Part shown: positions 1 through 64,000 of the stretch, in pieces | How the letters are laid out: every line of letters begins with the position of its first letter | Position numbering within the stretch: position 1 is the stretch's first letter | Source of the DNA: Chamaelirium japonicum | Taxonomy: Eukaryota > Streptophyta > Magnoliopsida > Liliales > Melanthiaceae | NCBI GenBank assembly: GCA_947650365.1 | Contig: OX393555.1 | Coordinates: 84,387,995-84,451,994, forward strand | DNA: 64,000 nucleotides | Reading direction: 5' to 3' | The notes under the pieces: model-generated | What the model saw: only the letters and a program-made list of their open reading frames with translations | What the model was told of the DNA's origin: nothing | The model's database searches: none | Made by a program: the position numbers and the translations under genes

Positions 1-942
1 TTTTAATCCATTCGTACGATCCATTCTAATTCATTCGCATTAATGTAACCATTCTAATTCATTCATTTGATCCATTCTAATTCTTTTGTACGATCCATTC
101 TAATTCATTCGTCCGATCCATTCTAATTCATTCGCACGAATGTATCCATTCTAAACCATTCATACGATCCATTCTAATTTATTCGTACGATCCATTCTAA
201 TTCATTCGTATGATCCATTCTAATTCATTCGTACGATCCATTCTAATTCATTCATACGATCAATTCTAATTCATTCGTAAGATCCATTCTAATTCATTCG
301 TATGATCCATTGTAATTCATTCGTACAATCCATTCTAATTCATTCGCACGAATGTATCCATTCTAGTTCATTCGTACGATCCATTCTAATTCATTCGTAC
401 GATCCATTCTAATTCATTCGCACGATCCATTCTAATTCATTCTTACGATCCATTCTAATTCATTCAGACGATCAATTCTAATTCATTCGTATGATCCATT
501 CTAATTCATTCGCACAAATGTATCCATTCTAATTCATTCGTACGATCCATTCTAATTCATTCGCACGATCCATTCTAACTCATTCGTACGATCCATTCTA
601 ATTCTTTCACACGATCCATTCTAATTCATTCGTACGATCCATTCTAATTCATTCGCACGATCCATTCAAATTCATTCGTACGATCTATTCTAATTCATTC
701 ATACGATCTATTCTAATTCATTCGTACGATCTATTCTAATTCATTCGCACAAATGTATCCATTCTAATTCATTCGTACGATCCATTCTAATTCATTCGCA
801 CGATCCATTCTAATTCATTCGTACGATCCATTCTAATTCATTCGCACGATCTGTTCTTATTCATTCGCACAATCCATTCTAATTCATTTGCACGAATATA
901 TCCATTCTAATTTATTCGTACGATCCATTCTAATTCATTCGT
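1..942 (+). repeat. Satellite block, + orientation
   Basis: Tandem + monomers running in from beyond the window. It contains several 28-bp units and a CTAAACC variant near 153 that recurs at 50234, 50501 and (as CTAAACT) near 55104. It ends at a GTAGAATG junction where a + monomer abuts a - monomer with no spacer. Confidence 0.93.
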
Positions 943-1783
943 AGAATGAATTAGAATGGATCCTACGAATGAATTAGAATAGATCGTGTGAAAGAATTAG
1001 AATGGATTGTATGAATGAATTAGAATGGATCGTACGAATGAATTAGAATGGATCGTACGAAGGAATTAGAATGGATCGTGCGAATGAATTAGAATGGATC
1101 GTATGAATGAATTAGAATAGATCGTACGAATGAATTAGAATGGATCGTACGAATGAATTAGAATGGATATATTCGTGCAAATGAATTAGAATGGATCGTA
1201 TGAATGTATTAGAATGGATCGTACGAATGAATTAGAATGGATCGTGTGAAAGAATTAGAATGGATTGTACGAATGAATTAGAATGGATCGTGCGAATGAA
1301 TTAGAATGGATCGTACGAATGAATTAGAATGGATACATTTGTGCGAATGAATTAGAATGGATCGTACGAATGAATTAGAATGGATCGTATGAATGAATTA
1401 AAATGGATACATTCGTGCGAATGAATTAGAATGGACCGGACGAATGAATTAGAATGGATCGTATGAATGAATTAGAATGGATCAAATGAATGAATTAGAA
1501 TGGTTACATTCATGCGAATGAATTAGAATGGATCGTACGAATGGATTAGAATGGATCGTACGAATGGATTAGAATGGATACATTCGAGCGAATGAATTAG
1601 AATGGATCGTACGAATGAATTAGAATGGATCGTACGAATGGATTAGAATGGATCCTACGAATGGATTAGAATGGATACCTTTGTGCATATGAATTAGAAT
1701 GGATCGTACGAATGAATTAGAATGGATCATATTAATGAATTAGAATGGATCGTACGAATGAATTAGAATGGATACATTCGTGC
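943..1783 (-). repeat. Satellite block, - orientation
   Basis: Reverse-oriented monomers directly facing the preceding + block, so about 0.84 kb on each side forms an inverted repeat with no loop. It ends in the palindrome GTGCAC. Confidence 0.93.
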
Positions 1784-2502
1784 ACGATCCATTCTAATTC
1801 ATTCGCACGAATGTATCCATTCTAATTCATTTGTACGATCCATTCTAATTCATTCGTACGATCCATTCTAATTCATTAGTAAGATCCATTCTAATTCATT
1901 CGTATGATCCATTCTAATTCATTCATACAATCCATTCTAATTCTTTCACACGATCCATTCTAATTCATTCGCACGATCCATTCTAATTCATTCGTACGAT
2001 CCATTCTAATTCATTCGTCCGATCCATTCTAATTCATTCGCACGAATGTATCAATTCTAATTCATTCGTACGATCCATTCTAATTCATTCGTACGATCCA
2101 TTCTAATTCATTCGTAAGATCCATTCTAATTCATTCGTACGATCCATTCTAATTCATTCGTACGATCCATTCTAATTCATTCGCACGAATGTATCCATTC
2201 TAGTTCATTCGTACGATCCATTCTAATTCATTCGTACGATCCATTCTAATTCATTCGCATGATCCATTCTAATTCATTCGTACGATCCATTCTAATTCAT
2301 TCATACGATCCATTCTAATTCATTCGTACGATCCATTCTAATTCATTCGCACAAATGTATCCATTCTAATTCATTCGTACGATCCATTCTAATTCATTCG
2401 CACGATCCATTCTTACTCAATCGTATGATCCATTCTAATTCATTCGGACGAATATATCCATTCTAATTTATTCGTACGATCCATTCTAATTCATTCGTAA
2501 GA
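1784..2502 (+). repeat. Satellite block, + orientation
   Basis: Plus monomers with 28-bp units spaced by several 23-bp units. It begins at the GTGCAC switch and ends at an unusual GTAAGATGGAATGG join in which part of a monomer is missing. Confidence 0.92.
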
Positions 2503-3115
2503 TGGAATGGATCATACGAATGAATTAGAATGGATCGTACGAATGAATTAGAATGGATCGTACGAATGAATTAGAATGGATATATTCGTGCGAATGAATT
2601 AGAATGGATACATTCATGCGAAAGAATTAGAATAGATCGTATGAATGAATTAGAATGGATCCTATGAATGAATTAGAATGGATCGTGCGAATGAATTAGA
2701 ATGGATTGTACGAATGAATTAGAATGGATCGTTTGAAAGAATTAGAATGGATCGTACGAATGAATTAGAATGGATCGTGTGAATGAATTAGAATGGATCG
2801 TACGAATGAATTAGAATGGATACATTTGTGCGAATGAATTAGAATGGATCGTACGAATGAATTAGAATGGATCGTGCTAATGAATTAGAATTGATCGAAC
2901 GAATGAATTAGCATGGATCGTGCTAATGAATTAGAATGGATCGTACGAATGAATTAGAATGGATCGTGCGAATGAATTTGAATGGATCGTACGAATGAAT
3001 TAGAATGGATATATTTGTGCGAATGAATTAGAATGGATCGTACGAATGAATTAGAATGGATCGTATGAATGAATTAGAATGGATCGTGCGAATAAATTCG
3101 AATGGATCGTACGAA
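2503..3115 (-). repeat. Satellite block, - orientation
   Basis: Minus monomers including GCTAATG and GATCGAACG variants. It ends at the GAATTC switch (3113-3118), the first of the recurrent class described in the findings. Confidence 0.93.
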
Positions 3116-3645
3116 TTCATTATAATTCATTCATACAATCCATTCTAATTCTTTCACACGATCCATTCTAATTCATTCATACGTTCCATTCTAATTCATT
3201 AGCACGATCCATGCTAATTCATTCGTTCGATCAATTCTAATTCATTAGCACGATCCATTCTAATTCATTCGTACGATCCATTCTAAGTCATTCGCACGAT
3301 CCATTCTCATTCATTCGCACGAATGTATCCATTCTAATTCATTCGTACGATCCATTCTAATTCATTCGTACGATCCATTCTAATTCAATTGTACGATCCA
3401 TTCTAATTCATTCATACGATCTATTCTAATTCATTCATACAATCCATTCTAATTCTTTCACACGATCCATTCTAATACATTCGTACGATCCATTCTAATT
3501 CATTCGTACGATCTATTCTAATTCATTCGTACGATCCATTCTAATTCATTCGTACGATCCATTCTAATTCCTTCGTAAGATCCATTCTAATTCATTCGTA
3601 CGATCCATTCTAATTCATTCGTACAATCTATTCTAATTCATTCGT
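3116..3645 (+). repeat. Satellite block, + orientation
   Basis: Starts with the diagnostic right flank of the GAATTC junction (TCATACAATCC followed by a CTTTCACACG monomer). It ends inside the palindrome TTCGTACGAA at 3641-3650, a switch repeated near 42220 and 53026. Confidence 0.93.
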
Positions 3646-4403: not shown

Positions 4404-4425
4404 CTAATGAATTAGAATGGATCGT
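4404..4425 (-). repeat. Single inverted monomer
   Basis: One minus monomer between plus monomers, flanked by ATGCTAATG on the left and CGTACG on the right. The same single-monomer inversion recurs at 20914 and, reverse-complemented, near 36920-36943. Confidence 0.9.
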
Positions 4426-12787: not shown

Positions 12788-13110
12788 ACGAATGAATTAG
12801 AATGGATCCTACGGATGAATTAGAATGGATCGTGTGAAAGAATTAGAATGGATTGTACGAATGAATTAGAATGGATCGTACGAATGAATTAGAATGGATC
12901 GTACGAATGAATTAGAATGGATCGTACGAATAAATTAGAATGGATACATTCGTCCAAATGAATTAGAATGGATCATACGAATGAGTAAGAATGGATCGTA
13001 CGAATGAAATAGAATAGATTGTACGAATGAATTAGAATGGATCATACGAATGAATTAGAATAGATCGTGTGAAAGAATTAGAATGGATTGTATGAATGAA
13101 TTAGAATGAA
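12788..13110 (-). repeat. Satellite block, - orientation
   Basis: Minus monomers ending at GAATTT (13108-13113), a mutated copy of the inverted form of the GAATTC switch. Confidence 0.91.
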
Positions 13111-14260
13111 TTTGTACGATCCATTCGAATTCATTCGCACGATCCATTCTAATTCATTCATACGATCCATTCTAATTCATTCATACAATCCATTCTAATT
13201 CTTTCACACGATCCATTCTAATTCATTCGTAGGATCCATTCTAATTCATTCATACAATCTATTCTATTTCATTCGTACGATCCATTCTTACTCATTCGTA
13301 TGATCCATTCTAATTCATTTGGACGAATGTATCCATTCTAATTTATTCGTACGATCCATTCTAATTCATTCGTACGATCCATTCTAATTCATTCGTACGA
13401 TCCATTCTAATTCATTCATCCGATCCATTCTAATTTATTCGCACGAATGTATCCATTCTAATTCATTCGTACGATCCATTCTAATTCATTCGCACAATCT
13501 ATTCTAATTCATTCATACGATCCATTCTAATTCATTCGCCCGAATGTATCCATTCTAATTCATTCATACGATCCATTCTACTTCATTCGTACTATCCGTT
13601 CTAATTCACTCATACGATCCATTCTAATTCATTCATACGATCCATTCTAATTCATTTGCACGAATATATCCATTCTAATTCATTCGTACGATCCATTCTA
13701 ATTCCTTCGTACGATCCATTCTAATTCCTTCGTACGATCCATTCTATTTCATTCGTATGATCCATTCTAATTCCATCGTACGATCCATTCTAATTCCTTC
13801 GTATCCATTCTAATTCACTCATACGATCCATTCAAATTCATTCGTACGATCCATTCTAATTCATTCATACAATCCATTCTAATTCATTCGCACGAATGTA
13901 TCCATTCTAGTTCATTCGTACGATCCATTCTAATTCATTCGTACGATCCATTCTAATTCATTCGAACGATCCATTCTAATTCATTCGTATGATCCATTCT
14001 AATTCATTCATACGATCTATTCTAATTCATTTGTACGATCCATTCTAATTCATTCGCACAAATGTATCCATTCTAATTCATTCGTACGATCCATTCTAAT
14101 TCATTCATACAATCCATTCTAATTCTTTCACACGATCCATTCTAATTCATTCGTACGATCCATTCTAATTCATTCGTGCAATCCATTCTATTTCGTTCAT
14201 ACGATCCATTCTTACTTATTCGTACGATCCATTCTAATTCATTCACACGAATGTATCCAT
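13111..14260 (+). repeat. Satellite block, + orientation
   Basis: Plus monomers including TTCCTTCG units. It ends at ATCCATTCGTACAAATG, a join recurring at about 28359 and 34112. Confidence 0.92.
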
Positions 14261-20913: not shown

Positions 20914-20935
20914 CTAATGAATTAGAATGGATCGT
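20914..20935 (-). repeat. Single inverted monomer
   Basis: Duplicate of the one-monomer inversion at 4404, at the same 16510-bp offset and with the same flanks (ATGCTAATG left, CGTACG right). Confidence 0.9.
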
Positions 20936-21152
20936 ACGATCCAATCTAATTCATTCATACGATCCATTCTTACTCATTCGTATGATCCATTCTAATTCAA
21001 TCGTACGATCCATTCTAATTCATTCGTACGATCCATTCTAATTCCTTCGTACGATCCATTCTAATTCATTCGTACGATCCATTCTAATTCATTCGTACGA
21101 TCCATTCTAATTCCTTCGTACGATCCATTCTAATTCCTTCGTACGATCTATT
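20936..21152 (+). repeat. Short satellite block, + orientation
   Basis: Nine or so plus units matching 4426 onward, then broken by a CGATCTATTGAAATAG join not seen at the earlier copy, which continues in + orientation. The break is therefore private to this copy. Confidence 0.9.
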
Positions 21153-22719
21153 GAAATAGAATGGATTGCACGAATGAATTAGAATTGATCGTACGAATGA
21201 ATTAGAATGGATCGTGCGAATGAATTAGAATGGATCGTACGAATGAATTAGAATGGATCGTACGAATGAACTAGAATGGATACATTTGTGCGAATAAATT
21301 AGAATGGATCGTACGAATGAATTAGAATGGATCGTACGAATGAATTAGAATGGATCTTACGAATGAATTAGAATGGATCGTACGAATGAATTAGAATGGA
21401 TCGTACGAATGAATTAGAATGGATACATTCGTGCGAATGAATTAGAATGGATCGGACGAATGAATTAGAATGGATCGTACGAATGAATTAGAATGGATCA
21501 AATGAATGAATTAGAATGGTTACATTCATGCGAATGAATTAGAATGGATCGTACGAATGGATTAGAATGGATCGTACGAATGGATTAGAATGGATACATT
21601 CGAGCGAATGAATTAGAATGGATCGTACGAATGAATTAGAATGGATCGTACGAATGGATTAGAATCGATCCTACGAATGGATTAGAATGGATACCTTTGT
21701 GCATATGAATTAGAATGGATCGTACGAATGAATTAGAATGGATCATATTAATGAATTAGAATGGATCGTATGAATGAATTAGAATGGATCGTACGAATGA
21801 ATTAGAATGGATACATTCGTGCGAATGAATTAGAATGGATACATTCGTGCGAAAGAATTAGAATAGATCGTATGAATGAATTAGAATGGATCCAATGAAT
21901 GAATTAGAATGGATCGTGCGAATGAATTAGAATGGATCGTACGAATGAATTAGAATGGATCGTGCTAATGAATTAGAATTGATCGAACGAATGAATTAGA
22001 ATGGATACATTCGTGCGAATGAATTAGAATGGATCGGACAAATGAATTAGAATGGATCGTACGAATGAGTAAGAATGGATCGTACGAATGAAATAGAATA
22101 GATCGTACGAATGAATTAGAATGGATCGTACGAAGGAATTAGAATGGATCGTACGAATGAATTAGAATGGATATATTCGTGCAAATGAATTAGAATGGAT
22201 CGTATGAATGTATTAGAATGGATCGTATGAGTGAATTAGAATGGATCGTACGAATGAATTAGAATTGATCGTATGAATGAATTAGAATGGATACATTCGT
22301 GTGAATGAATTAGAATGGATCGTACGAATGAATTAGAATAGCTCATACGAATGAATTAGAATGAATCGTATGAATGAATTAGAATGGTTACATTCGTGCG
22401 AATGAATTAGAATAGATCGTACGAATGAATTAGAATGGATCGTACGAATAAATTAGAATGGATCGTGGGAATGAATTAGAATTGATCGTACGAATGAATT
22501 AGAATGAATCCACCGAATGAGTTAGAATGGATCATACGAATGAATTAGAATGGATTGTACGAATGAATTAGAATGGATTGTGCGAATGAATTAGAATGGA
22601 TCGTATGAATGAATAAGAATGGATCATACGAATGAATTAGAATGGATCGTGCGAATGAATTAGCATGAATCATACGAATGTATTAGAATGGATCGTACGA
22701 ATGATTTAGAATGAATCGT
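21153..22719 (-). repeat. Satellite block, - orientation
   Basis: Minus monomers with markers AGCTCATACG, GTGGGAATG and CCACCGAATGAG near 22330-22520 that recur in order after the LTR (47410-47600) and at 62910-63110. It ends in CGTACG. Confidence 0.93.
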
Positions 22720-23474
22720 ACGATCCATTCTAATTCAATCGTCCGATCCATTCTAATTCATTCGCATGAATGTATCCATTCTAATTCATTCGTACAATCC
22801 ATTCTATTTCATTCGTACGATCCATTCTTACTCATTCGTATGATCCATTCTAATTCATTCGTATGATCCATTCTAATTCATTCGTACGATCCATTCTAAT
22901 TCATTCGTACGATCCATTCTAATTCATTCGCACGATCCATTCTAATTCATTCATACGATCCATTCTAATTCATTCATACGATCCATTCTAATTCATTCCT
23001 ACAATCCATTCTAATTCATTCGCCCGATCCATTCTAATTCATTCATACGATCCATTCTATTCGAATGGATCATGCGGTCCATTCGAATTCATTCGCACGA
23101 TCCATTCTAATTCATTCATACGATCCATTCTAATTCATTCATACAATGCATTCTAATTCTTTCACACGATCCATTCTAATTCATTCGTACGATCCATTCT
23201 AATTCATTCGTACAATCCATTCTATTTCATTTGTACGATCCATTCTTACTCATTCGTATGATCCATTCTAATTCATTCGTACGATCCATTCTAATTCATT
23301 TGTACGATCCATTCTAATTCATTCGTACAATCCATTCTATTTCATTCGTACGATCCATTCTTACTCATTCGTATGATCCATTCTAATTCATTCGCACGAA
23401 TGTATCCATTCTAATTCATTCATACAATCCATTCTAATTCATTCCGTACGATCCATTCTAATTCATTCGTGCGA
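22720..23474 (+). repeat. Satellite block, + orientation
   Basis: Contains a tiny reversed piece, TTCGAATGGATCATGCG, at about 23060. It matches 43821 onward at an offset of 21101 bp. It ends in CGATCG (23472-23477). Confidence 0.92.
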
Positions 23475-23902
23475 TCGTACGAATGAATTAGAATGGATCG
23501 TACGAATGAATTAGAATAGATTGTGCGAATGAATTAGAATGGATCGTACGAATGAATTAGAATGGATCGTACGAATGAATTAGAATGGATCATACGAATG
23601 AGTAAGAATGGATCGTACGAATGAATTAGAATGGATCGTACGAATGAATTAGAATGGATCGTACGAATAAATTAGAATGGATACATTCGTCCGAATGAAT
23701 TAGAATGGATCATACGAATGAGTAAGAATGGATCGTACGAATGAAATAGAATAGATTGTACGAATGAATTAGAATGGATCCTACGGATGAATTAGAATGG
23801 ATCGTGTGAGAGAATTAGAATGGATTGTATGAATGAATTAGAATGGATCGTATGAATAAATTAGAATGGATCGTGCGAATGAATTCGAATGGATCGTACG
23901 AA
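23475..23902 (-). repeat. Satellite block, - orientation
   Basis: Minus monomers duplicated at 44576-45003. It ends at GAATTC 23900-23905. Confidence 0.93.
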
Positions 23903-25659
23903 TTCATTCTAATTCATTCATACAATCCATTCTAATTCTTTCACACGATCCATTCTAATTCATTCGTACGTTCCATTCTAATTCATTAGCACGATCCTTG
24001 CTAATTCATTCGTTCGATCAATTCTAATTCATTAGCACGATCCATTCTAATTCATTCGTACGATCCATTCTAATTCATTCGTACGATCCATTCTAATTCA
24101 TTCGCACGATCCATTCTAATTCATTCATAGGATCCATTCTAATTCATTCATACGATCTATTCTAATTCTTTCACACGAATGTATCCATTCTAATTCATTC
24201 GCACGAATGTATCCATTCTAATTCATTCGTACGATCCATTCTAATTCATTCGTACGATCCATTCTAATTCGTTCATACGATCTATTCTAATTCATTCATA
24301 CAATCCATTCTAATTGTTTCACAAGATCCATTCTAATTCATTCTTACGATCCATTCTAATTCATTCGCACAACCCATTCTATTTCATTCGTACGATCCAT
24401 TCTTATTCATTGGTACGATCCATTCTAATTCATTCGCACGAATGTATCCATTCTAATTCATTCATACGAATCCATTCTAATTCATTCGTACAATCTATTC
24501 TATTTCATTCGTACGATCCATTCTTACTCATTCGTATGATCCATTCTAATTCATTCGGACGAATGTATCCATTCTAATTTATTCGTATGATCCTTTCTAA
24601 TTCATTCGTACGATCCATTCTAATTCATTCGTACGATCCATTATAATTCATTCGTCCGATCCATTCTAATTCATTCGCACGAATGTATCCATTCTAATTC
24701 ATTCGTACGATCCATTCTAATTCATTCGTACGATCCATTCTAATTCATTCGTAAGATCCATTCTAATTGATTCGTACGATCCATTCTAATTCACTCATAC
24801 GATCCATTCTAATACATTCATACGATCCATTCTAATTCATTTGCACGAATATATCCATTCTAATTCATTCGTACGATCGATTCTAATTCCTTCGTACGAT
24901 CCATTCTAATTCATTCATACAATGCATTCTAATTCTTTCACACGATCCATTCTAATTCATTCGTACGATCCATTCTAATTCATTCGTACAATCCATTCTA
25001 TTTCATTTGTACGATCCATTCTTACTCATTCGTATGATCCATTCTAATTCATTCGTACAATCCATTCTAATTCATTTGTACGATCCATTCTAATTCTTTC
25101 ACACGATCCATTCTAATTCATTCGTAGGATCCATTCTAATTCATTCGTACAATCTATTCTAATTCATTCGTACGATCCCTTCTAATTCATTCGTACGATC
25201 CATTCTAATTCATTTGCACGAATATATCCATTCTAATTCATTCGTACGATCCATTCTAATTCCTTCGTACGATCCATTCTAATTCATTCGTACGATCTAT
25301 TCTATTTCATTCGTACGATCCATTCTTACTCATTCGTACGATCCATTCTAATTCATTCGTCCGATCCATTCTAATTCATTCGCACGAATGTATCCATTCT
25401 AATTCATTTGTTCGATCAATTCTAATTCATTAGCACGATCCATTCTAATTCATTCGTACGATCCATTCTAATTCATTCGCACGATCCATTCTAATTCATT
25501 CATTGGATCCATTCTAATTCATTCATACGATCTATTCTAATTCTTTCGCACGAATGTATCCATTCTAATTCATTCGTACGATCCATTCTAATTCATTCGT
25601 ACGATCCATTCTAATTCATTAATATGATCCATTCTAATTCATTCGTACGATCCATTCTA
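23903..25659 (+). repeat. Satellite block, + orientation
   Basis: Plus monomers. Against the copy starting at 45004 the offset drops from 21101 to 21078 between about 24050 and 24100, an indel of one monomer. The open frame at 24314-24577 is periodic satellite, not a gene. It ends at GATCCATTCTACAAATG. Confidence 0.92.
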
Positions 25660-27221
25660 CAAATGAAATAGAATGGATTGTACGAATTCATTCGTGCGAA
25701 TGAATTAGAATGGATCATACGAATGAGTAAGAATGGATCGTACGAATGAAATAGAATGGATTGTACGAATGAATTAGAATGGATCGTACGAAGGAATTAG
25801 AATGGATCGTACAAATGAATTAGAATGGATTCGTACGAATGAATTAGAATGGATTCGTGCGAATGAATTAGAATGGATCGTACCAATGAGTAAGAATGGA
25901 TCGTACGAATGAATTAGAATGGATCGTATGAATTAGAATGGATCGTACCAATGAGTAAGAATGGATCGTGCAAATGTATTAGAATGGATCGTATGAATGT
26001 ATTAGAATGGATCGTACGAATGAATTAGAATGGATTCGTACGAATGAATTAGACTGGATACATTCGTGCGAATGAATTAGAATAGATCGTACCAATGAGT
26101 AAGAATGGATCGTACGAATGAATTAGAATGGATCGTACGAATGAATTAGAATGGCGTCCGAATGAATTAGAATGGATCGTACGAATGAATTAGAATGGAT
26201 CATATTAATGAAATTGAATGGATCGTACGAATGAATTAGAATGGATACATTTGTGTGAATGAATTAGAATGGATCGTGCACGAATGAGTAAGAATAAATT
26301 AGAATGGATCATACGAATGAATTAGAATGGATCGTACGAATTAATTAGAATGGATATATTCGTGCAAATGAATTAGAATGGATTGTATGAATGTATTAGA
26401 ATGGATCGTATGAGTGAATTAGAATGGATCGTACGATTGAATTAGAATGGATCGTACGAATGAATTAGAATGGATACATTCGTGCGAATGAATTAGAATG
26501 GATACATTCGTGCGAAAGAATTAGAATAGATCGTATGAATGAATTAGAATGGATCCTATGACTGAATTAGAATGGATCGTTCGAATGAATTAGAATGGAT
26601 CGTACGAATGAATTAGAATAGATCGTACGAATGAATTAGAATGGATCGTACGAAGGAATTAGAATGGATCGTACGAAGGAATTAGAATGGATATATTCGT
26701 GCAAATGAATTAGAATGGATCGTATGAATGTATTAGAATGGATCGTGCGAATGAATTAGAATGGATCGTACGAATGAATTAGAATCGATCGTACGAATGA
26801 ATTAGAATGGATCTTACGAATGAATTAGAATGGATCGTACGAATGAATTAGAATGGATCCTACGAATGAATTAGAATGGAAACATTCGTGCGAATGAATT
26901 AGAATGGATCGGACGAATGAATTAGAATGGATCGTACGAATGAATTAGAATGGATCATACGAATGAATTAGAATGGATTGTACGAATAAATTAGAATGGA
27001 TACATTCGTCCGAATGAATTAGAATGGATCATACGAATGAATAAGAATGGATCGTACGAATGAAATAGAATAGATTGTACGAATGAATTAGAATGGATCC
27101 TACGAATGAATTAGAATGGATCGTGTGAAAGAATTAGAATGGATTGTATGAATGAATTAGAATGGATCGTATGAATGAATTAGAATGGATCGTGCAAATG
27201 AATTCGAATGGATCGTACGAA
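25660..27221 (-). repeat. Satellite block, - orientation
   Basis: Minus monomers with several partial units (GTACGAATTCATTCGTGCG at 25682, GTGCACGAATGAG near 26277). It ends at GAATTC 27219-27224. Confidence 0.92.
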
Positions 27222-27583
27222 TTCATTCTAATTCATTCATACAATCCATTCTAATTCTTTCACACGATCTATTCTAATTCATTCATAGGATCCATTCTAA
27301 TTCATTCGTACAATCTATTCTATTTCATTCGTACGATCCATTCTTACTCATTCGTATGATCCATTCTAATTCATTCGGACGAATGTATCCATTCTAATTC
27401 ATTCGTACGATCCATTCTAATTCATTCGTACGATCCATTCTAATTCATTCGTCCGATTCATTCTAATTCATTCGCACGAATGTATCCATTCTAATTCATT
27501 CGTACGGTCCATTCTAATTCATTCGCACAATCCATTCTATTTCATTCGTACGATCCATTCTTACTCATTCGTATGAACCATTA
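27222..27583 (+). repeat. Satellite block, + orientation
   Basis: Begins with the GAATTC right flank and ends at CATTATGGATAC, as at 7634, 19714, 38482 and 60025. Confidence 0.93.
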
Positions 27584-29602: not shown

Positions 29603-29632
29603 TCGTACGAATGAATTAGAATGGATCGTACG
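29573..29632. repeat. Perfect 60-bp palindrome at a block switch
   Basis: Two 30-base arms with no spacer, centred on GATC at 29601-29604. Symmetry stops because the right side has an extra G (CGTACGGAATG). Confidence 0.9.
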
Positions 29633-36919: not shown

Positions 36920-36943
36920 TACGATCCATTCTAATTCATTAGC
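36920..36943 (+). repeat. Single + monomer in - array
   Basis: One plus monomer whose left edge is CGTACG and right edge CATTAGCATGG. With its flanks it is the reverse complement of the single-monomer inversion at 4404. Confidence 0.9.
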
Positions 36944-43331: not shown

Positions 43332-44575
43332 GTCATTCTAATTCATTCATACAATCCATTCTAATTCTTTCACACGATCCATTCTAATTCATTCGTACGT
43401 TCCATTCTACTTCATTAGCACGATCCATGCTAATTCATTCGTTTGATCAATTCTAATTCATTAGCATGATCCATTCTAATTCATTCGTACGATCCATTCT
43501 AATTCATTCGCACGATCCATTCTAATTCATTCATAGGATCCATTCTAATGCATTCATACAATCCATTCTAATTCATTCGCACGAATGTACCCATTCTAAT
43601 TCATTCGTACGATCAGTTCTAATTCATTCACAAAATCTATTCTAATTCATTCATACGATCCATTCTAATTCATTCACACGAATGTATCCATTCTAATTCA
43701 TTTATACGATCCATTCTAATTCATTCGTCCGATCCATTCTAATTCATTCGCACGAATGTATCCATTCTAATTCATTTATACGATCCATTCTAATTCATTC
43801 GTACGATCCATTCTAATTCATTCGTAAGATCCATTCTAATTCATTCATACGATCCATTCTAATTCATTCGTACGATCCATTCTAATTCATTCGTACCATC
43901 CATTCTATTTCATTCGTACGATCCATTCTTACTCATTCGTATGATCCATTCTAATTCATTCGTATGATCCATTCTAATTCATTCGTACGATCCATTCTAA
44001 TTCATTCGTACGATCCATTCTAATTCATTCGCACGATCCATTCTAATTCATTCATACGATCCATTCTAATTCATTCATACGATCCATTCTAATTCATTCC
44101 TACAATCCATTCTAATTCATTCGCCCGATCCATTCTAATTCATTCATACGATCCATTCTATTCGAATGGATCATGCGATCCATTCGAATTCATTCGCATG
44201 ATCCAGTCTAATTCATTCATACGATCCATTCTAATTCATTCATACAATGCATTCTAATTCTTTCACACGATCCATTCTAAATCATTCGTACGATCCATTC
44301 TAATTCATTCGTACAATTCATTCTATTTTATTTGTACGATCCATTCTTACTCATTTGTATGATCCATTCTAATTCATTCGTACGATCCATTCTAATTCAT
44401 TTGTACGATCCATTCTAATTCATTCGTACAATCCATTCTATTTCATTCGTACGATCCATTCTTACTCATTCGTATGATCCATTCTAATTCATTCGCACGA
44501 ATGTATCCATTCTAATTTATTCATACAATCCATTCTAATTCATTCCGTACGATCCATTCTAATTCATTCGTACGA
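43332..44575 (+). repeat. Satellite block, + orientation
   Basis: Contains the TTCGAATGGATCATGCG mini-inversion at 44161. It ends in the left arm of a 60-bp perfect palindrome centred at 44575/44576. Confidence 0.92.
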
Positions 44576-44605
44576 TCGTACGAATGAATTAGAATGGATC
44601 GTACG
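44546..44605. repeat. Perfect 60-bp palindrome at a block switch
   Basis: Same palindrome as 29573-29632, centred on GATC 44574-44577. Here the extra base lies on the left (CATTCCGTACG), so this copy is inverted relative to the other. Confidence 0.9.
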
Positions 44606-45003
44606 AATGAATTAGAATAGATCGTGCGAATGAATTAGAATGGATCGTACGAATGAATTAGAATGGATCGTATGAATGAATTAGAATGGATCATACGAAT
44701 GAGTAAGAATGGATCGTACGAATGAATTAGAATGGATCGTACGAATGAATTAGAATGGATCGTTCGAATAAATTAGAATGGATACATTCGTCCGAATGAA
44801 TTAGAATGGATCATACGAATGAGTAAGAATGGATCGTATGAATGAAATAGAATAGATTGTACGAATGAATTAGATTGGATCCTACAAATGAATTAGAATG
44901 GATCGTGTGAAAGAATTAGAATGGATTGTATGAATGAATTAGAATGGATCGTATGAATGAGTTAGAAGGGATCATGCGATTGAATTCGAATGGATCGTAC
45001 GAA
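44576..45003 (-). repeat. Satellite block, - orientation
   Basis: Duplicate of 23475-23902 at 21101 bp. It ends at GAATTT (45001-45006), a mutated GAATTC switch. Confidence 0.93.
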
Positions 45004-46166
45004 TTTATTCTAATTCTTTCATACAATCCATTCTAATTCTTTCACACGATCCATTCTAATTCATTCGTACGTTCCATTCTAATTCATTAGCACGATCCAT
45101 GCTAATTAATTCGTTCGATCAATTCTAATTCATTAGCACGTTCCATTCTAATTCATTCGTACGATCCATTCTAATTCATTCGCACGATCCATTCTAATTC
45201 ATTCATAGGATCCATTCTAATTCATTCATACGATCTATTCTAATTCTTTCGCACGAATGTATCCATTCTAATTCATTCGCACGAATGTCCATTCTAATTC
45301 ATTCGTACGATCCATTCTAATTCATTCGTACGATCCATTCGAATTCATTCGCACGATTCATTCTAATTCATTCATATGATCCATTCTAATTCATTCATAC
45401 AATCCATTCTAATTCTTTCACATGATCAATTCTAATTCATTCGTACGATCCATTCTAATTCATTCGTACAATCCATTCTATTTCATTCTTACGATCCATT
45501 CTTACTCATTCGTATGATCCATTCTAATTCATTCGTATGATCCATTCTAATTCATTCGTACGATCCATTCTAATTCATTCGTACGATCCATTCTAATTCA
45601 TTCGTACAAATGTATCCATTCTAATTCATTTGCACGATCCATTCTAATTCATTCCTATGATCTATTCTAATTCATTCGTACGATCCATTCTAATTCATTC
45701 TAATTCAATCGTACGATTCATTCTACGATCCATTCTAATTCATTCATACGATCCATTCTAATTCATATGCACAAAGGTATCCATCCATTCTAATCTATTC
45801 GTAGGATCCTTTCTAATCCATTCGTACGATCCATTCTAATTCATTCGTACGATCCATTCTAATTCATTCGCTCGAATGTATCCATTCTAATCCATTCGTA
45901 CGATCCATTCTAATCCATTCGTACGATCCATTCTAATTCATTCGCATGAATGGAACCATTCTAATGAATTCATATGATCCATTCTAATTCATTCGTACGA
46001 TCCATTCTAATTCATTCGTCCAATCCATTCTAATTCATTCGCACGAATGTATCCATTCTAATTCATTCGTCCGATCCATTCTAATTCATTCGTACGATCC
46101 ATTCTAATTCATTCATAAGATCCATTCTAATTCATTCGTACGATCCATTCTAATTCATTCGTACGA
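45004..46166 (+). repeat. Satellite block, + orientation
   Basis: Plus monomers ending in the left arm of the 60-bp palindrome centred at 46166/46167. Truncated units occur near 45290 (GAATGTCCATTC), 45700 and 45780. Confidence 0.92.
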
Positions 46167-46336: not shown

Positions 46337-46370
46337 TGTGGGTGCAAATTTTGGCAGAAGTTTACCAACT

Positions 46371-46628
46371 ACCACGGGACCCACTGGCCCTGCCTGGTGG
46401 GCCCACGAAGACTACCACGGGACCCACCGGCCCTGCCTGGTGGGCCCACGAAGACTACCACGGGACCCACCAGCCTTGCCTGGTGGGCCCACGAAGACTA
46501 CCACGGGACCCACCGGCCCTGCCTGGTGGGCCCACGAAGACTACCGCGGGACCCACCGACTCTGCCGGATGGGCCCACGAGGACCACCGCGAGATCCACC
46601 GGCCCTGCCCAGTAGACCCACGAGCCTG
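46371..46628 (+). repeat. Six 43-bp tandem repeats in U3
   Basis: Units start at 46371, 46414, 46457, 46500, 46543 and 46586, exactly 43 bp each, with GGGACCCACCGG and GGTGGGCCCACGAAGAC as landmarks. The first four are nearly identical and the last two have diverged. They lie about 110-365 bp before the TATA box, where LTR enhancers usually sit. Because 43 is not a multiple of three, the same peptides reappear in shifted frames on both strands; frames at 46306-46740, 46329-46631, 46397-46615 and on the reverse strand are by-products of this. Confidence 0.93.
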
Positions 46629-46735
46629 TAGAATCCCACAGAAGATGGTAGCGGAGCCCACCAGCTTTACCTGGAGGATCCCCAGATACGACAGCAGAAA
46701 CCGCCATTTACCCCGGAATTCCTCCCAGAGAAGCC

Positions 46736-46743
46736 TATAAATA
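46736..46743 (+). promoter_or_regulatory. TATA box of the LTR
   Basis: TATAAATA in the context CCTATAAATAGCAG, a strong match to the plant TATA consensus. Transcription would be expected to start about 25-35 bases downstream (near 46765-46770), marking the U3/R boundary, and to run rightwards out of the LTR into satellite. The start site is inferred. Confidence 0.75.
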
Positions 46744-46809
46744 GCAGAGCCTTCGAATGTAAAAAGATCGAACTCTCAGTTCTAAAACCCGAGCTCTGAG
46801 ATTTCCAAC

Positions 46810-46850
46810 TTCCCATCTACCATCTCTCTTTGATCTTCTTCTCTCCTTCG
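46810..46850 (+). other. CT-rich leader in R/U5
   Basis: Pyrimidine-rich stretch containing CATCTCTCTTTG and CTTCTTCTCTCC, 70-115 bases after the TATA box, as in many plant 5' leaders. It supports the + strand orientation of the LTR. No clear AATAAA polyadenylation signal was found. Confidence 0.5.
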
Positions 46851-46870
46851 AAGAGATCAGAGTGTTTCTA

Positions 46871-46895
46871 GTGATACTCGGCCTGTCGAGATCAC
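46871..46895 (+). other. Stem-loop in U5
   Basis: GTGAT and CTCG (46871-46880, one bulged A) pair with CGAG and ATCAC (46887-46895) around a 6-base loop. It would form in the transcript; function unknown. Confidence 0.45.
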
Positions 46896-47060
46896 TTCGA
46901 CATAAGTGTTAGTGAATTCGGGTTGCTCCCTATAGCACGGAGACGTAGGCTTCGGCTGAACTCCGAGATCACCTCTCGTGTCTACTCTCTGATTGCATAT
47001 CGCTTTCTATTGACATATCAAAAGGCTTCAACTTCAATCAACAGATCGACCAACGATCTT

Positions 47061-47068
47061 TGACGTCA
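47061..47068. promoter_or_regulatory. TGACGTCA bZIP-type motif
   Basis: Perfect 8-bp palindrome TGACGTCA, the core recognised by bZIP factors such as the plant TGA family. It lies downstream of the promoter in U5, so a regulatory role is only possible; one 8-mer can also occur by chance. Confidence 0.35.
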
Positions 47069-47096
47069 ACTTCAACTCCAATTGACTGGTGCTGCG

Positions 47097-47124
47097 AAAG
47101 TCTTCGGGTCGGCACGAAGATTTT
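47097..47124 (+). other. Stem-loop at LTR 3' end
   Basis: AAAGTCTTCG (47097-47106) pairs with CGAAGATTTT (47115-47124) with one G-U pair and an 8-base loop, eight bases before the LTR end. It could affect RNA end formation or reverse transcription in the parent element; this is inferred. Confidence 0.45.
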
Positions 47125-47132
47125 CCCCCACA

Positions 47133-47137: not shown

Positions 47138-47797
47138 TACGAATGAATTAGAATGGATCGTACGAATGAATTAGAATGGATCAAATGAATGAATTAGATT
47201 GGATCGTACGAATGAATTAGAATGCATCGTACGAAAGAATTAGAATGGATATATTCGTGCGAATGAATTAGAATGGATCGTACGAATGAATTAGACTGGA
47301 TCGTACGAATGAATTTGAATGGATACATTTGTGCGAATGAATCTAAATGGATTGTATGAATGAATTACAATGGATCGTACGAATGAATTAGAATGGATCG
47401 TACGAATAAATTAGAATAGCTCATACGAATGAATTAGAATGAATCGTATGAATGAATTAGAATGGTTACATTCGTACGAATGAATTAGAATAGATTGTAC
47501 GAATGAATTAGAATGGATCGTACGAATAAATTAGAATGGATCGTGGGAATGAATTAGAATGGATCGTACGAATGAATTAGAATGGATCCACCGAATGAGT
47601 TAGAATAGATCATACGAATGAATTAGAATGGATTGTACGAATGAATTAGAATGGATTGTGCGAATGAATTAGAATGGATCGTATGAATGAATAAGAATGG
47701 ATCGTACGAATGAATTAGAATGGATCGTGCGAATGAATTAGCATGAATCGTACGAATGTATTAGAATGGATCGTACGAATGAATTAGAATGAATCGT
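47133..47797 (-). repeat. Satellite block, - orientation, right of LTR
   Basis: Continuation of the block cut by the LTR. It carries the GAATGCATCG unit at 47224 (shared with 37531 and 37886) and the AGCTCATACG, GTGGGAATG, CCACCGAATGAG series shared with 22330-22520. It ends in CGTACG 47795-47800. Confidence 0.93.
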
Positions 47798-48141
47798 ACG
47801 ATCCATTCTAATTCATTCGTACGATCCATTCTAATTCATTCGCATGAATGTATCCATTCTAGTTCATTCGTACGATCCATTCTAATTCATTCGTACGATC
47901 CATTCTAATTCATTCGTATGATCCATTCTAATTCATTCGTACGATCCATTCTAATTCATTTATTTGATCCATTCTAATTCATTCGTATGATCCATTCTAA
48001 TTCATTCGTACGATCCATTCTAATTCATTCGTACGATCCATTCTAATTCATTCGTAAGATCCATTCTAATTAATTCGTACGATCCATTCTAATTCATTCG
48101 TACGATCCATTCTAATTCATACGCACGAATGTATCCATTCT
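47798..48141 (+). repeat. Satellite block, + orientation
   Basis: Plus monomers ending in the palindrome ATTCTAGAAT, centred at 48141/48142, a switch type seen nowhere else in the window. Confidence 0.92.
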
Positions 48142-48684
48142 AGAATGAATTAGAATGGATCGTATGAATGAATTAGAATGGTCCGTACGAATGAATTAGA
48201 ATGGATCGTGCGAATGAATTAGAATGGATCGTACGAATGAATTAGAATGGATCGTACGAATGAACTAGAATGGATACATTCGTGCGAATGAATTAGAATG
48301 GATCGTACGAATGAATTAGAATGGATCGTACGAATAAATTAGAATGGATCGTACGAATGGATTAGAATGGTTCATACGAATGAATTAGATTGGATCGTGC
48401 GAATGAATTAGAATGGATCGAACGAATGAATTAGAATGGATATATTCGAGCGAATGAATTAGAATAGATCGTAGGAATGAATTAGAATGGATCATACGAA
48501 TGAATTACAATGGATCGTACGAATGAATTAGAATGGATCGTACGAATGAATTAGAATGGATGGTGTGAAAGAATTAGAATGGATTGTATGAATGAATTAG
48601 AATAGATCGTATGAATGAATTAGAATGGATATATTCGTGCGAATGAATTAGAATGGATCGTACGAATGAATTAGAATGGATCGT
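48142..48684 (-). repeat. Satellite block, - orientation
   Basis: Minus monomers ending in CGTACG followed by ATTCATTC, the same join as at 18098. Confidence 0.92.
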
Positions 48685-51020
48685 ACGATTCATTCTAATT
48701 CATTCGTACGATCCATTCTAATACATTCGTACGATTCATGCTAATTCATTCGCACGATCCATTCTAATTCATTCGTACGATCCATTCTTATTCATTCATA
48801 CGATCCATTCTAATTCATTCGCACAATCCATTCTAATTCATTCGTACAATCTATTCTAATTCATTCGTATGATCCATTCTAACTCATTCGGTGGATCCAT
48901 TCTAATTCATTCGTACGATCCATTCTAAATCATTCCCACGATCCATTCTAATTTATTCGTACGATCCATTCTAATTCATTTGTACGATCTATTCTAATTC
49001 ATTCTCACGAATGTAACCATTCTAATTCATTCATACGATTCATTCTAATTCATTCATATGAGCTATTCTAATTTATTCGTACGATCCATTCTAATTCATT
49101 CGTACGATCCATTGTAATTCATTCATACAATCCATTTAGATTCATTCGCACAAATGTATCCATTCAAATTCATTCGTACGATCCAGTCTAATTCATTCGT
49201 ACGATCCATTCTAATTCATTCGCACGAATATATCCATTCTAATTCTTTCGTACGATGCATTCTAATTCATTCGTACGATCCATTCTAATTCATTCGTACG
49301 ATCCATTCTAATTCATTCATACGATCCATTCTAATTCATTCGCACGAATGTATCCATTCTAATTCATTCGTACAATCCATTCTATTTCATTCGTACGATC
49401 CATTCTTACTCATTCGTATGATCCATTCTAATTCATTCATATGATCCATTCGTATGATTCGTACGATCCATTCTAATTCATTCGCACGATCCATTCTAAT
49501 TCATTCATATGATCCATTCTAATTCATTCATACAATCCATTCTAATTCTTTCACACGATCCATTCTAATTCATTCATACGATCCATTCTAATTCATTCAT
49601 ACAATCCATTCTATTTCATTCGTACGATCCATTCTTACTCATTCGTATGATCCATTCTAATTCATTCGTACGATACATTCTAATTCATTCGTACGATCCA
49701 TTCTAATTCATTCGTACGATCCATTCTAATTCATTCGCACGATCCATTCTAATTCATTCGCACGATCCATTCTAATTCATTCATAGGATCCATTCTAATT
49801 CATTCATACGATCTATTCTAATTCTTTCGCACGAATGTATCCATTCTAATTCATTCGCACGAATGTATCCAATCTAATTCATTTGTACGATCCACTCTAA
49901 TTCATTCGTACGATCCATTCTAATTCATTCGTACGATCCATTCTAATTCATTCGTACGATCCATTCAAATTCATTCGCACGATCCATTCTAATTCATTCG
50001 TACAATCCATTCTATTTCATTCGTACGATCCATTCTTACTCATTCGTATGATCCATTCTAATTCATTCGCACGAATGTATCCATTCTAATCCATTCGTAC
50101 GATCCATTCTAATTCATTCGCATGAATATAACCATTCTAATTCATTCATTTGATCCATTCTAATTCATTCGTACGATCCATTCTAATTCATTCGTCCGAT
50201 CCATTCTAATTCATTCGCACGAATGTATCCATTCTAAACCATTCATACGATCCATTCTAATTTATTCGTACGATCCATTCTAATTCATTCGTAAGATCCA
50301 TTCTAATTCATTCGTACGATCCATTCTAATCCATTCTAATTTATTCGTACGATCCATTCTAATTCCTTCGTACGATCCATTCTAATTCCTTCGTACGATC
50401 CATTCTATTTCATTCGTATGATCCATTCTAATTCATTCGTACGATCCATTCTAATCATTCGTCCGATCCATTCTAATTCATTCGCACGAATGTATCCATT
50501 CTAAACCATTCATACGATCCATTCTAATTTATTCGTACGATCCATTCTAATTCATTCGCAAGATCCATTCTAATTCATTCGTACGATCCATTCTAATCCA
50601 TTCTAATTTATTCGTACTATCCATTCTAATTCCTTCGTACGATCCATTCTAATTCCTTCGTACGATCCATTCTATTTCATTCGTATGATCCATTCTAATT
50701 AATTCGTACGATCCATTCTAATTCATTCATATGATCCATTATAATTCATTCGTACGATCCATTCTTACTCATTCGTACGATCCATTCTAATTCATTCATA
50801 CAATCCATTCTAATTCATTCGTACGATCCATTCTTACTCATTCGTATGATCCATTCTAATTCATTCGTACGATCCATTCTAATTCATTCGCACGAATGTA
50901 TCCATTCCATTCGTACGATCCATTCATACAATCCATTCTAATTCATTCATACAATCCATTCTAATTCTTTCACACGATCCATTCTAATTCATTCGTACGA
51001 TCCATTCTAATTCATTAGCA
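48685..51020 (+). repeat. Long satellite block, + orientation
   Basis: About 2.3 kb of plus monomers. The first 400 bp match 18099 onward. It contains a 267-bp tandem duplication (50194-50727). It ends at CATTAGCATGG, the inverted form of the join at 4404. Confidence 0.92.
50194..50727 (+). repeat. 267-bp tandem duplication
   Basis: GTCCGAT at 50194 and 50461 and CTAAACC at 50234 and 50501 give the same 267-bp spacing; the order of variants matches throughout. A related third copy lies near 55068. Confidence 0.85.
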
Positions 51021-57999: not shown

Positions 58000-58015
58000 C
58001 GTATGATCTATTCTA
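58000..58015 (+). repeat. Tiny + insert in - array
   Basis: GTATGATCTATTCTAA, less than a monomer, between minus units. Edges are uncertain by a few bases. Confidence 0.8.
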
Positions 58016-60025: not shown

Positions 60026-60232
60026 ATGGATACATTCGTTTCGTGCGAATGAATTAGAATGGATCATACGAATGAGTAAGAATGGATCGTACGAATGAAA
60101 TAGAATGGATTGTGCGAATGAATTAGAATGGATCATAGAATGGATCAGAATAGATCGTGTGAAAGAATTAGAATGGATCGTATGAATGAATTAGAATGGA
60201 TCGTGCGAATGACTTCGAATGGATCGTACGAA
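60026..60232 (-). repeat. Short satellite block, - orientation
   Basis: Starts with a 28-bp unit holding four to five extra bases (CATTCGTTTCGTGCG) that other copies lack, then truncated units near 60135. It ends at GAATTC 60230-60235. Confidence 0.92.
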
Positions 60233-60403
60233 TTCATTCTAATTCATTCATACAATCCATTCTAATTCTTTCACACGATCTATTCTGATCCATTCTACGA
60301 TCCATTCTAATTCATTCGCACAATCCATTCTATTTCATTCGTACGATCCATTCTTACTCATTCGTATGATCCACTCTAATTCATAAGCATGAATGTATCC
60401 ATA
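60233..60403 (+). repeat. Short satellite block, + orientation
   Basis: About seven plus units beginning with the GAATTC right flank, with deletions near 60285. It ends at CCATAATGGATG. Confidence 0.91.
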
Positions 60404-62370: not shown

Positions 62371-63113
62371 TAGAATGGATCGTACGAATGAATTAGAATG
62401 GATCATATTAATGAATTAGAATGGATCATACGAATGAATTACAATGGATCGTACGAACGAATTAGAATGGATCGTACGAAGGAATTAGAATGGATCGTAC
62501 GAATGAATTAGAATGGATATATTCATGCAAATGAATTAGAATGGATCGTATGAATGAATTAGAATGGATCGTACTAATGAATTAGAATGGATATATTCGT
62601 GCAAATGAATTAGAATGGATCGTATGAATGTATTAGAATGGATCGTATGAGTGAATTAGAATGGATCGTACGAATGAATTAGAATGGATCGTACGAATGA
62701 ATTAGAATGGATCGTGTGAAAGAATTAGAATGGATTGTATGAATGAATTAGAATAGATCGTATGAATGAATTAGAATGGATCATACGAATGAATTAGAAT
62801 GGATCGTACGAATGAATTTGAATGGATACATTTGTGCGAATGAATCTAAATGGATTGTATGAATGAATTACAATGGATCGTACGAATGAATTAGAATGGA
62901 TCGTACGAATGAATTAGAATAGCTCATACGAATAAATTAGAATGAATCGTATGAATGAATTAGAATGGTTACATTCGTGCGAATGAATTAGAATAGATCG
63001 TACGAATGAATTAGAATGGATCGTACAAATAAATTAGAATGGATCGTGGGAATGAATTAGAATGGATCGTACGAATGAATTAGAATGGATCCACCGAATC
63101 AGTTAGAATGGAT
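62371..63113 (-). repeat. Satellite block, - orientation
   Basis: Minus monomers with the AGCTCATACG, GTGGGAATG, CCACCGAATC series (third copy of 22330-22520 and 47410-47600). It ends at GGATCATTCTAATTC. Confidence 0.92.
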
Positions 63114-63612
63114 CATTCTAATTCATTCGTACGATCCATTCTAATTCATTCGCACAAATGTATCCATTCTAATTCATTCGTACGATCCATTCTAATTCAT
63201 TCGCACGATCCATTCTAATTCATTCGTACGATCCATTCTAATTCATTCGTACGATCCATTCTAATTCATTCGTATGATCCATTCTAATTAATTCGTATGA
63301 TCCATTCTAATTCATTCGTACGATCCATTCTAATTCATTCATACAATCCATTCTAATTCATTCGCACGAATGTATCCATTCTAATTAATTCGTACGATCC
63401 ATTCTAATTCATTCGTATGATCTATTCTTATTCATTCGCACGATCAAGTCTAATTGATTCGCACGATCCATTCTAATTCATTCGCACGAATGTATCCATT
63501 CTAATTCATTCGTACGATCCATTCTAATTCATTAATATGATCCATTCTAATTCATTCGTACGATCCATTCTAATTCATATGCACAAAGGTATCCATTCTA
63601 ATTCATTTGCAC
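63114..63612 (+). repeat. Satellite block, + orientation
   Basis: Duplicate of about 56590-57087 at an offset of 6525 bp, measured at the AAGGTATCC unit (57061 and 63586), including the shared right-hand switch. Confidence 0.93.
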
Positions 63613-63927
63613 GAAAGAATTAGAATGGATTGTATGAAAGAATTAGAATGGATCGTGAGAATGAATTAGAATGGATCGTACGAAGGAATTAGAATGGATC
63701 GTACGAAGGAATTAGAATGGATCATACGAATGAGTAAGAATGGATCGTAAGAATGGATCGTACGAATGAAATAGAATAGATTGTACGAATGAATTAGAAT
63801 GGATCCTACGAATGAATTAGAATGGATCGTGTGAAAGAATTAGAATGGATTGTATGAATGAATTGGAAGGGATCGTATGAATGAATTAGAATGGTTCGTG
63901 CGAATGAATTAGAATGGATCGTACGAA
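63613..63927 (-). repeat. Satellite block, - orientation
   Basis: Minus monomers ending at GAATTC 63925-63930 with the standard flanks. Confidence 0.92.
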
Positions 63928-64000
63928 TTCATTCTAATTCATTCATACAATCCATTCTAATTCTTTCACACGATCCATTCTAATTCATTCGTACGTTCCA
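63928..64000 (+). repeat. Satellite block, + orientation, cut by window end
   Basis: Standard right flank of the GAATTC switch (TCATACAATCC, then a CTTTCACACG unit), leaving the window in + orientation. Confidence 0.92.

What the first reader, a model, noticed from the sequence alone, without database searches (positions are those of the whole stretch)
1..64000. Satellite array whose orientation flips 76 times
Most tandem satellites run head-to-tail for long distances. Here one 23-bp satellite alternates direction every 16 bp to 4.2 kb, and the two directions are nearly balanced (about 32.7 kb against 30.5 kb by hand sum). Every neighbouring pair of blocks is an inverted repeat with almost no loop. 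This is seen directly. What makes or keeps it (template switching, break repair, fold-back replication) is inference.
Basis: partly seen in the sequence, partly recalled or inferred. Interest (0 to 1): 0.78.

Follow-up and report, generated by a model that had tools for sequence, protein, structure and literature searches.

The report
Flipping plant centromere satellite, copied wholesale
This is the centromere repeat of a plant whose centromeres are spread along the chromosome; its many direction flips are real but mostly copies of a few old flips, spread in large blocks between places and, if the assembly is right, between chromosomes.

Summary
The window is 63.2 kb of a 23/28-bp satellite that changes direction 66 times on the strictest count, 74-76 at moderate settings and 86 at the loosest. 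It is almost certainly the Chio1/Chio2 satellite of the holocentric lily relative Chionographis japonica, whose mixed orientation is published.

The new part is history. 74 switches fall into about 31 junction sequences. One has 19 copies in the window, and its exact 42-mer occurs 11,892 times in the genome, evenly on both strands. Ten other places carry the same retrotransposon insertion. To its left all ten share the window's switch map for 4.4 kb (three of three for 14.4 kb) at 0.5-0.8% divergence; to its right five of ten do. A rare junction 45 kb away has exact matches only at the window and nine of those ten. Switches are therefore mostly inherited by block copying. Founding junctions carry slight microhomology, do not prefer the monomer's dyads, and a minority have mirrored arms.

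The phenomenon is known. I found its genealogy, and this evidence of block copying, in none of the papers read.

The parts
1..64000 (.). Mixed-orientation array of a 23-bp monomer (TTCATTCGTACGATCCATTCTAA) and a 28-bp variant (TTCATTCGCACGAATGTATCCATTCTAA), Chio1/Chio2-like; about 1,376 forward and 1,279 reverse monomers, 364 of them the 28-bp type
   Evidence: match to the text description of Chio1/Chio2
46337..47132 (+). Solo LTR (TGTGGG...CCCACA, 796 bp, internal GC-rich 43-bp tandem repeat), target-site duplication GATCT/GATCG here and GATCT/GATCT in other copies
943..944 (.). Low-copy switch junction (u10); exact 42-mer at 10 places in the genome, the window and nine of the ten other places that carry the LTR insertion
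3114..3115 (.). One copy of junction class A (reverse-to-forward), 19 copies in the window, both orientations; the commonest 42-mer of the class occurs 7 times in the window and 5,918 + 5,974 times in the genome
42224..42225 (.). One copy of junction class B (forward-to-reverse), 6 copies at the 0.93 cut; an exact 42-mer of the class 3,818 + 3,782 times in the genome
22716..24514 (+). Switch-bearing block (two junctions) duplicated directly at 43822-45607 (94.9%) and in inverse at 28356-30308 (92.4%, hit 22774-24733)
12830..13446 (.). Mirrored arms of a class A junction: 282 nt arms, 96% complementary, 53-nt spacer; the like at 26909-27479 (259 nt, 53-nt spacer) and 60040-60393 (162 nt, 30-nt spacer)
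47140..49342 (.). Local inverted duplication (47140-48116 against 48361-49342, 95.3%) that carries a class A junction twice and a third switch between
21152..21153 (.). Edited junction (u21): about 82 bp that hold an older junction in a related copy (L039) are absent here; the second copy (L038) starts inside those 82 bp but has their end
25215..25688 (.). 474-bp stretch (445 bp forward, 29 bp reverse) standing where two other copies have about 79 bp around a palindromic junction (CGTACGATC/GTACGAATG); makes junction u22 at 25659, whose exact 42-mer occurs once in the genome; nearest held relative of the 445 bp is the inverse of 21734-22183 (97.1%), donor unresolved

Best explanation
This is a stretch of a Chio1/Chio2 centromere unit of Chionographis japonica. 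Its direction changes form a mosaic that is mostly inherited, not continuously generated. SHOWN: 74 switches reduce to about 31 junction sequences. Ten of these are multi-copy and eight of the ten occur in both orientations. Half of the junctions lie inside longer duplicated blocks, direct and inverse. Two junction sequences occur thousands of times genome-wide on both strands. A block tagged by one retrotransposon insertion sits at eleven assembled places (the window included) with the same switch map on its left side, and about 45 kb away it is tagged by a rare junction whose exact matches are the window and nine of the other ten places. INFERRED: (1) founding flips were rare events joined through short microhomology (break repair or replication template switching), some as inverted duplications with a short spacer. 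(2) They were multiplied by homologous recombination: tandem amplification, ectopic conversion or break-induced copying between arrays. Recombination between forward and reverse stretches moves and inverts existing junctions without making new ones. (3) Later deletion or ectopic copying at a junction alters its sequence, so some classes that look unique are edited old flips.
For: Junction classes: 31 at 93% identity, a level above the highest of 1,770 artificial junction pairs (0.926); sizes 19, 6, 6, 4, 4, 3, 3, 3, 3, 2 and 21 singles. Flanks 40-140 bp and 100-250 bp away are also more alike within than between classes. 61 self-duplications score more than 10 above the best of two monomer-shuffled nulls, 35 direct and 26 inverse; 37 of 74 junctions lie in them. 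Genome counts: class A 11,892, class B 7,600, u10 10, u22 1 (4 of 31 classes tested). LTR tag: the same flank on the left in 10 of 10 other places and on the right in all nine solo copies plus the outer end of the full-length copy, the latter with an LTR at each end and the same GATCT duplication. All 5 switches within 4.4 kb left shared in 10 of 10, all 14 within 14.4 kb in 3 of 3 read that far, no aligned base there with a different direction. Microhomology of 2 bp or more in 14 of 31 classes against 16% in re-called artificial junctions. Examples of multiplication and editing: a unit with two switches repeated three times in L013; a 6.3-kb unit with four switches in L033, 98.0% over the 3.7 kb of its second copy that were read; edited junctions.
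Against: Flank likeness within classes vanishes at 250-450 bp (0.869 within, 0.886 between), so the older copying tracts are short or eroded. 21 of 31 classes are single in the window, and only two of those were counted genome-wide. Half of the junctions (37 of 74) lie in no duplication above the null. Right of the LTR, 5 of 10 copies depart or meet an insertion within 0.8-2.5 kb, so blocks are not always copied whole; in L018, 3 of the 7 junctions after the departure match no window junction at 0.93. In L034, 5 of 10 junctions match none either. Positions depend on a scaffolded assembly larger than the measured genome, so some of the eleven places may be haplotypic duplicates or misplaced. 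Eleven different sequences still need at least six loci if the plant is diploid.
Confidence: 0.78

Rival explanations
1. Ongoing fold-back: the monomer's dyads (GTAC, GATC, AATT) form hairpins, replication turns round on them, and each switch is an independent recent event.
For: The published monomers have dyads and a predicted hairpin. Class E is a perfect palindrome at GATC. Mirrored arms exceed chance in 12 of 74 junctions at P<0.05 and 3 at P<0.01, with three strong cases of 162-282 nt arms at 96%.
Against: Dyad registers 4 of 31 classes against 4.0 expected. Recurrent junction sequences with private variants. No switch gained or lost across 14 switches in three copies diverged by 0.6-0.7%.
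Confidence: 0.1
2. The recurrent junctions are kept by selection because they matter for centromere structure (loops, binding sites), as proposed for the conserved inversion sites of Tribolium madens.
For: Class A and B junctions are very abundant and nearly equal on both strands. Conserved inversion sites recur in an unrelated satellite.
Against: A presumably neutral passenger, the solo LTR, is copied together with its switches. Rare and unique junctions coexist with abundant ones in the same block. Junctions are deleted and overwritten in the window.
Confidence: 0.1
3. Assembly artefact: the switches are chimeric joins.
For: Satellite scaffolds are hard to assemble; the assembly is larger than the measured genome.
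Against: The same switch map recurs at ten other assembled places with 0.46-0.78% substitutions on the left side and different monomer indels. Blocks (median 723 bp) are far shorter than the HiFi libraries of 14-26 kb mean length described for the published assembly. Mixed orientation was published for this satellite.
Confidence: 0.02
4. In-place inversions by recombination between satellite stretches of opposite direction produce the alternation.
For: Junction classes occur in both orientations, near one another.
Against: Such crossing-over joins forward to forward, so it can flip existing junctions but cannot add any (reasoning from geometry). It can explain orientation of copies, not their number.
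Confidence: 0.1

Closest known systems
Chio1/Chio2 centromeric satellite of Chionographis japonica (Kuo et al. 2023, PMC10264360, abstract, passages and sections 8, 14, 29 read; Kuo et al. 2025, PMC12722358, passages and section 12 read)
   Same: 23- and 28-bp monomers that differ by 5 bp and one substitution; shared 9-mer TTCGTACGA (944 copies on both strands in the window); mixture of forward and reverse arrays; genome of about the same size
   Different: Nothing in the array itself. The text read gives no junction genealogy, copy numbers of junctions or LTR-tagged blocks; monomer letters were not in the main text, so the match is to the description
Conserved inversion sites and macro-dyad symmetries of TmSat1/TmSat2 in Tribolium madens (PMC13081366, passages read, part of the abstract among them)
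   Same: Satellite arrays switch direction at a few junction sequences that recur thousands of times (2,044 INV_1a, 3,486 INV_1b and 6,428 INV_2 there; 11,892 and 7,600 exact 42-mers here)
   Different: A plant, a 23-bp monomer, many more junction types per stretch, no two-armed cassette; here a passenger insertion shows that junctions travel by copying
Chama satellite of Chamaelirium luteum (PMC12722358, passages read)
   Same: Sister genus, shares the 9-mer TTCGTACGA
   Different: 60-bp monomer in consistently oriented arrays without retrotransposons

Membership tests
Chio1/Chio2 satellite of Chionographis japonica | 23-bp dominant and 28-bp minor monomer, the 23-bp form with a 5-bp deletion and one substitution | tested here: met
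   23-mer and 28-mer in the window differ by AATGT and T/C (text)
Chio1/Chio2 satellite of Chionographis japonica | 9-mer TTCGTACGA in the monomer | tested here: met
   944 exact copies on both strands in the window; named
Chio1/Chio2 satellite of Chionographis japonica | Mixture of forward and reverse arrays, both variants intermingled | tested here: met
Chio1/Chio2 satellite of Chionographis japonica | Exact published monomer letters | not testable with these tools
   no monomer letters in the main text (search for ATTC and GTACGA)
Chio1/Chio2 satellite of Chionographis japonica | CENH3 occupancy | not testable with these tools
   no ChIP data at hand
Chio1/Chio2 satellite of Chionographis japonica | Genome of the expected size | tested here: met
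   own genome 1,518,659,071 bp in 3,253 contigs; published primary assembly 1,526,137,861 bp in 3,786 contigs; close, not identical
Satellite arrays with conserved inversion sites (Tribolium type) | Few junction sequences recurring in high copy across the genome | tested here: met
   for classes A and B; rare and unique ones also exist
Satellite arrays with conserved inversion sites (Tribolium type) | Arrays mostly of two subarrays forming one large symmetric palindrome | tested here: not met
   dozens of blocks of uneven length in the window; mirrored arms in a minority
Fold-back (hairpin-primed) inverted duplication | Arms are mirror copies of each other | tested here: inconclusive
   12 of 74 junctions at P<0.05, 3 at P<0.01; old arms may have eroded
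Fold-back (hairpin-primed) inverted duplication | Axis at a dyad of the monomer | tested here: not met
   4 of 31 classes, 4.0 expected

The most novel reading that the evidence does not exclude
Orientation mosaics are the visible trace of how a holocentromere spreads. Blocks of 46 kb or more, switches and passengers included, are copied between centromere units of different chromosomes in a recent burst. The LTR tree is star-like, with 1-5 substitutions per copy from its centre. The LTR points to the nearer contig end in 8 of 9 placed copies, the window included (they lie in about five clusters, so they are not independent), as if units exchange while chromosome ends are aligned, rather than by random reinsertion of circles. 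Switch junctions would then serve as heritable barcodes that date every copying event.
Probability: 0.35. Interest if true: 0.8.

Novelty: new member of a known kind. Interest (0 to 1): 0.58.

Why it matters
How centromere units came to be spread along Chionographis chromosomes is stated as unknown in the 2025 paper. Here a single retrotransposon insertion and its neighbouring direction switches mark the same satellite block at eleven assembled places, three chromosome-scale contigs among them. That is direct sequence evidence for copying of large blocks between places, and between units if the scaffolds hold. Junction sequences give a set of barcodes from unique to more than ten thousand copies, so the tempo, length and orientation of such copying become measurable. 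It also offers a plain-descent reading of 'conserved inversion sites' that were read as possibly functional in Tribolium.

Tried and rejected
Rejected: chance or model artefact (controls); special balance of directions; dyad-centred switching; assembly artefact as a general cause.

Weak or flawed tests kept in view. The first self-BLAST at 95% and at least 400 bp found only 2 duplications; a laxer search with nulls replaced it. The first mirror-arm test found 0 of 61 and 1 of 43, but its null held same-class pairs; (800-bp arms) gave 9 of 74 and (350-bp arms) 12 of 74. The first microhomology null did not re-call the junctions; one search did. The RF microhomology result rests largely on two classes (values 8 and 14). 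Class members are not independent, so pair-based and per-junction P values are too small.

Sampling bias: L033 and L034 were chosen because class A or B hits lay there; 8 of their 12 matches to window junctions were those hits, 4 of the other 9 junctions matched. Of three further stretches, two were chosen in A/B-free gaps of C1 and one near the window; one was entirely and two mostly non-satellite, and 3 of 3 junctions found matched window classes. Chromosome-end stretches of C5, C6 and C7 (six of 600 bp) were read for telomere repeats; two read N, three had none, one had 6 scattered TTTAGGG, so the ends are not confirmed as telomeres.

Full report
What is there. The window is one array of a 23-bp monomer and a 28-bp variant (+AATGT, T to C), interrupted by one solo LTR at 46337-47132. 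A two-direction HMM finds 76 switches with the 23-mer alone. With both monomers it finds 66 to 86 depending on the switch penalty, 74 at the setting used below. Controls: no switch in two one-direction arrays sampled from forward monomers, 599 of 599 artificial switches recovered. Interior blocks have median 723 bp, range 166 to 4,212 bp at the strict setting. The near balance of the two directions is what permuted block lengths give.

What it is. [quoted passage not shown] The later paper speaks of their 'frequently alternating orientation' and names the 9-mer TTCGTACGA, which the window holds 944 times. The window lies at C7:84387995-84451994 of a genome of 1.519 Gb; the published primary assembly has 1.526 Gb. 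The species name is thus inferred; the monomer letters were not in the text I could read. The observation itself is therefore published in outline.

Switches are copies. Junctions of 80 bp were compared on both strands. At 93% identity, above the maximum of 1,770 artificial pairs, 74 junctions form 31 classes: 19, 6, 6, 4, 4, 3, 3, 3, 3, 2 and 21 singles (25 classes at 0.90, 20 at 0.88). Eight of the ten multi-copy classes occur in both orientations, though the margin is small for some members. Flanks at 40-140 bp and 100-250 bp are more alike within classes, but not at 250-450 bp. 61 self-alignments score more than 10 above the best of two monomer-shuffled nulls, 35 direct and 26 inverse, covering 42.0 kb of the window; 37 of 74 junctions lie inside them. 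For example 22716-24514 with two junctions recurs directly at 43822-45607 and in inverse at 28356-30308.

Genome-wide counts. An exact 42-mer over class A occurs 5,918 times forward and 5,974 reverse; class B 3,818 and 3,782; reversed controls 0. The junction at 943 occurs at 10 places and that at 25659 once. Four of 31 classes were counted, exact matches only.

A tagged block. The LTR search scored 40 of 7,174 candidates (so counts are lower bounds) and found eleven full-length matches of 98.9% or better, the window included. At the ten other places the left flank is the same satellite sequence, and the right flank is the same in the nine solo copies. On C44 there is an LTR at each end of an element about 12.6 kb long, whose middle was not read through, with GATCT on both outer sides: one insertion, later copied. 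Four further LTR relatives that I fetched (L019, L021, L022, L023) have other flanks. Left of the LTR, all five switches within 4.4 kb are shared by 10 of 10, and all 14 within 14.4 kb by the three read that far; no aligned base differs in direction; mismatches are 0.46-0.78%. On the right, five copies follow the window to the end of 4.4 kb and five depart or meet an insertion within 0.8-2.5 kb. The junction at 943, about 45 kb from the LTR, is found at the window and at nine of the ten other places (not C44), at 41-47 kb, once 62 kb. The placed copies lie on contigs C5, C6 and C7, with others on C32 and C44. Eleven different sequences in a diploid need at least six loci, whatever the scaffolding. 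LTR differences are nearly additive around one copy (1-5 substitutions in 796), a star-like tree; the two LTRs of the full-length copy differ at 10 sites and by one 43-bp unit. With a rate of 1.3e-8 per site and year, recalled and not calibrated here, this is a few hundred thousand years.

How junctions arise and change. Founding classes show more microhomology than re-called artificial junctions: 14 of 31 with 2 bp or more against 16%. They do not favour the registers of the monomer's dyads (4 of 31). Mirrored arms exceed chance in a minority (12 of 74 at P<0.05, 3 at P<0.01), clearest as arms of 162-282 nt at 96% with spacers of 30-53 nt. In two other copies of the block, read over the stretch of window 20.2-30 kb, the blocks follow the window's order: 11 of 13 switches in L039 and 9 of 10 in L038 lie at matching block lengths, with 98.4-99.6% identity where aligned. 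The rest are edits in the window. About 82 bp holding a junction are missing at 21152, and a 474-bp stretch, 445 bp of it forward, stands where the others have about 79 bp around a palindromic junction. The donor of the 445 bp is unresolved; the nearest held sequence is the inverse of 21734-22183 at 97.1%. Neither edit changes the number of switches. Multiplication is seen in L013, where a unit of about 1.6 kb with two switches recurs three times, and in L033, where a 6.3-kb unit with four switches repeats (98.0% over 3.7 kb). In L018 the right flank from about 0.8 kb has 7 further junctions, 4 of them of known classes, 3 not, which looks like recombination with another array.

Mechanism. The reading that fits best is rare founding flips through short microhomology, some as inverted duplications, then multiplication and dispersal by homologous copying between arrays. 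Once both directions exist, recombination between opposite stretches inverts existing junctions but cannot add any; this is geometry, not a result. Which pathway copies the blocks (conversion, break-induced replication, unequal exchange, circles) is not shown.

Compared with the known. The 2023 paper proposes interlocus conversion or circle reintegration for the spread of Chio, and the 2025 paper calls the mechanism unknown. The closest parallel is Tribolium madens, where a few inversion sites recur thousands of times and are read as possibly functional; its authors state that such symmetries were documented only in that genus. My searches bearing on a junction or LTR genealogy of such arrays (listings, with passages of the papers named) found none for Chio. 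That covers only the open library held here.

Noticed in passing
46368-46623: GC-rich 43-bp tandem repeat (about 6 copies) inside the solo LTR; the 3' LTR of the full-length element on C44 is one unit longer (839 against 796 bp).
   Followed up: partly
L009, right flank from about 2.5 kb: A non-satellite insertion begins 2.5 kb right of the LTR in the copy at C5:82274875; not identified.
   Followed up: no
G000 C5, C6 (LTR copies): Copies on one contig lie 0.89-1.07 Mb apart (C5:1635040/2703995, C5:81388851/82274875, C6:2005399/2985540), which may be megabase tandem duplication or haplotypes placed side by side.
   Followed up: no
L035, L036, L037: Two gaps free of the abundant junctions on C1, and a stretch 48 kb right of the window, are mostly or wholly non-satellite, so arrays are broken up by other DNA.
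   Followed up: partly
4409-4421, 20919-20931, 36917-36940: Micro-blocks of 13-24 bp in opposite direction; their junctions fall in the same two classes, in both orientations, so they look like copies of one event.
   Followed up: partly
28-bp monomers, for example 341-360: The 28-bp variant itself holds an inverted ATTCG-CA-CGAAT, like a miniature switch within one monomer.
   Followed up: no
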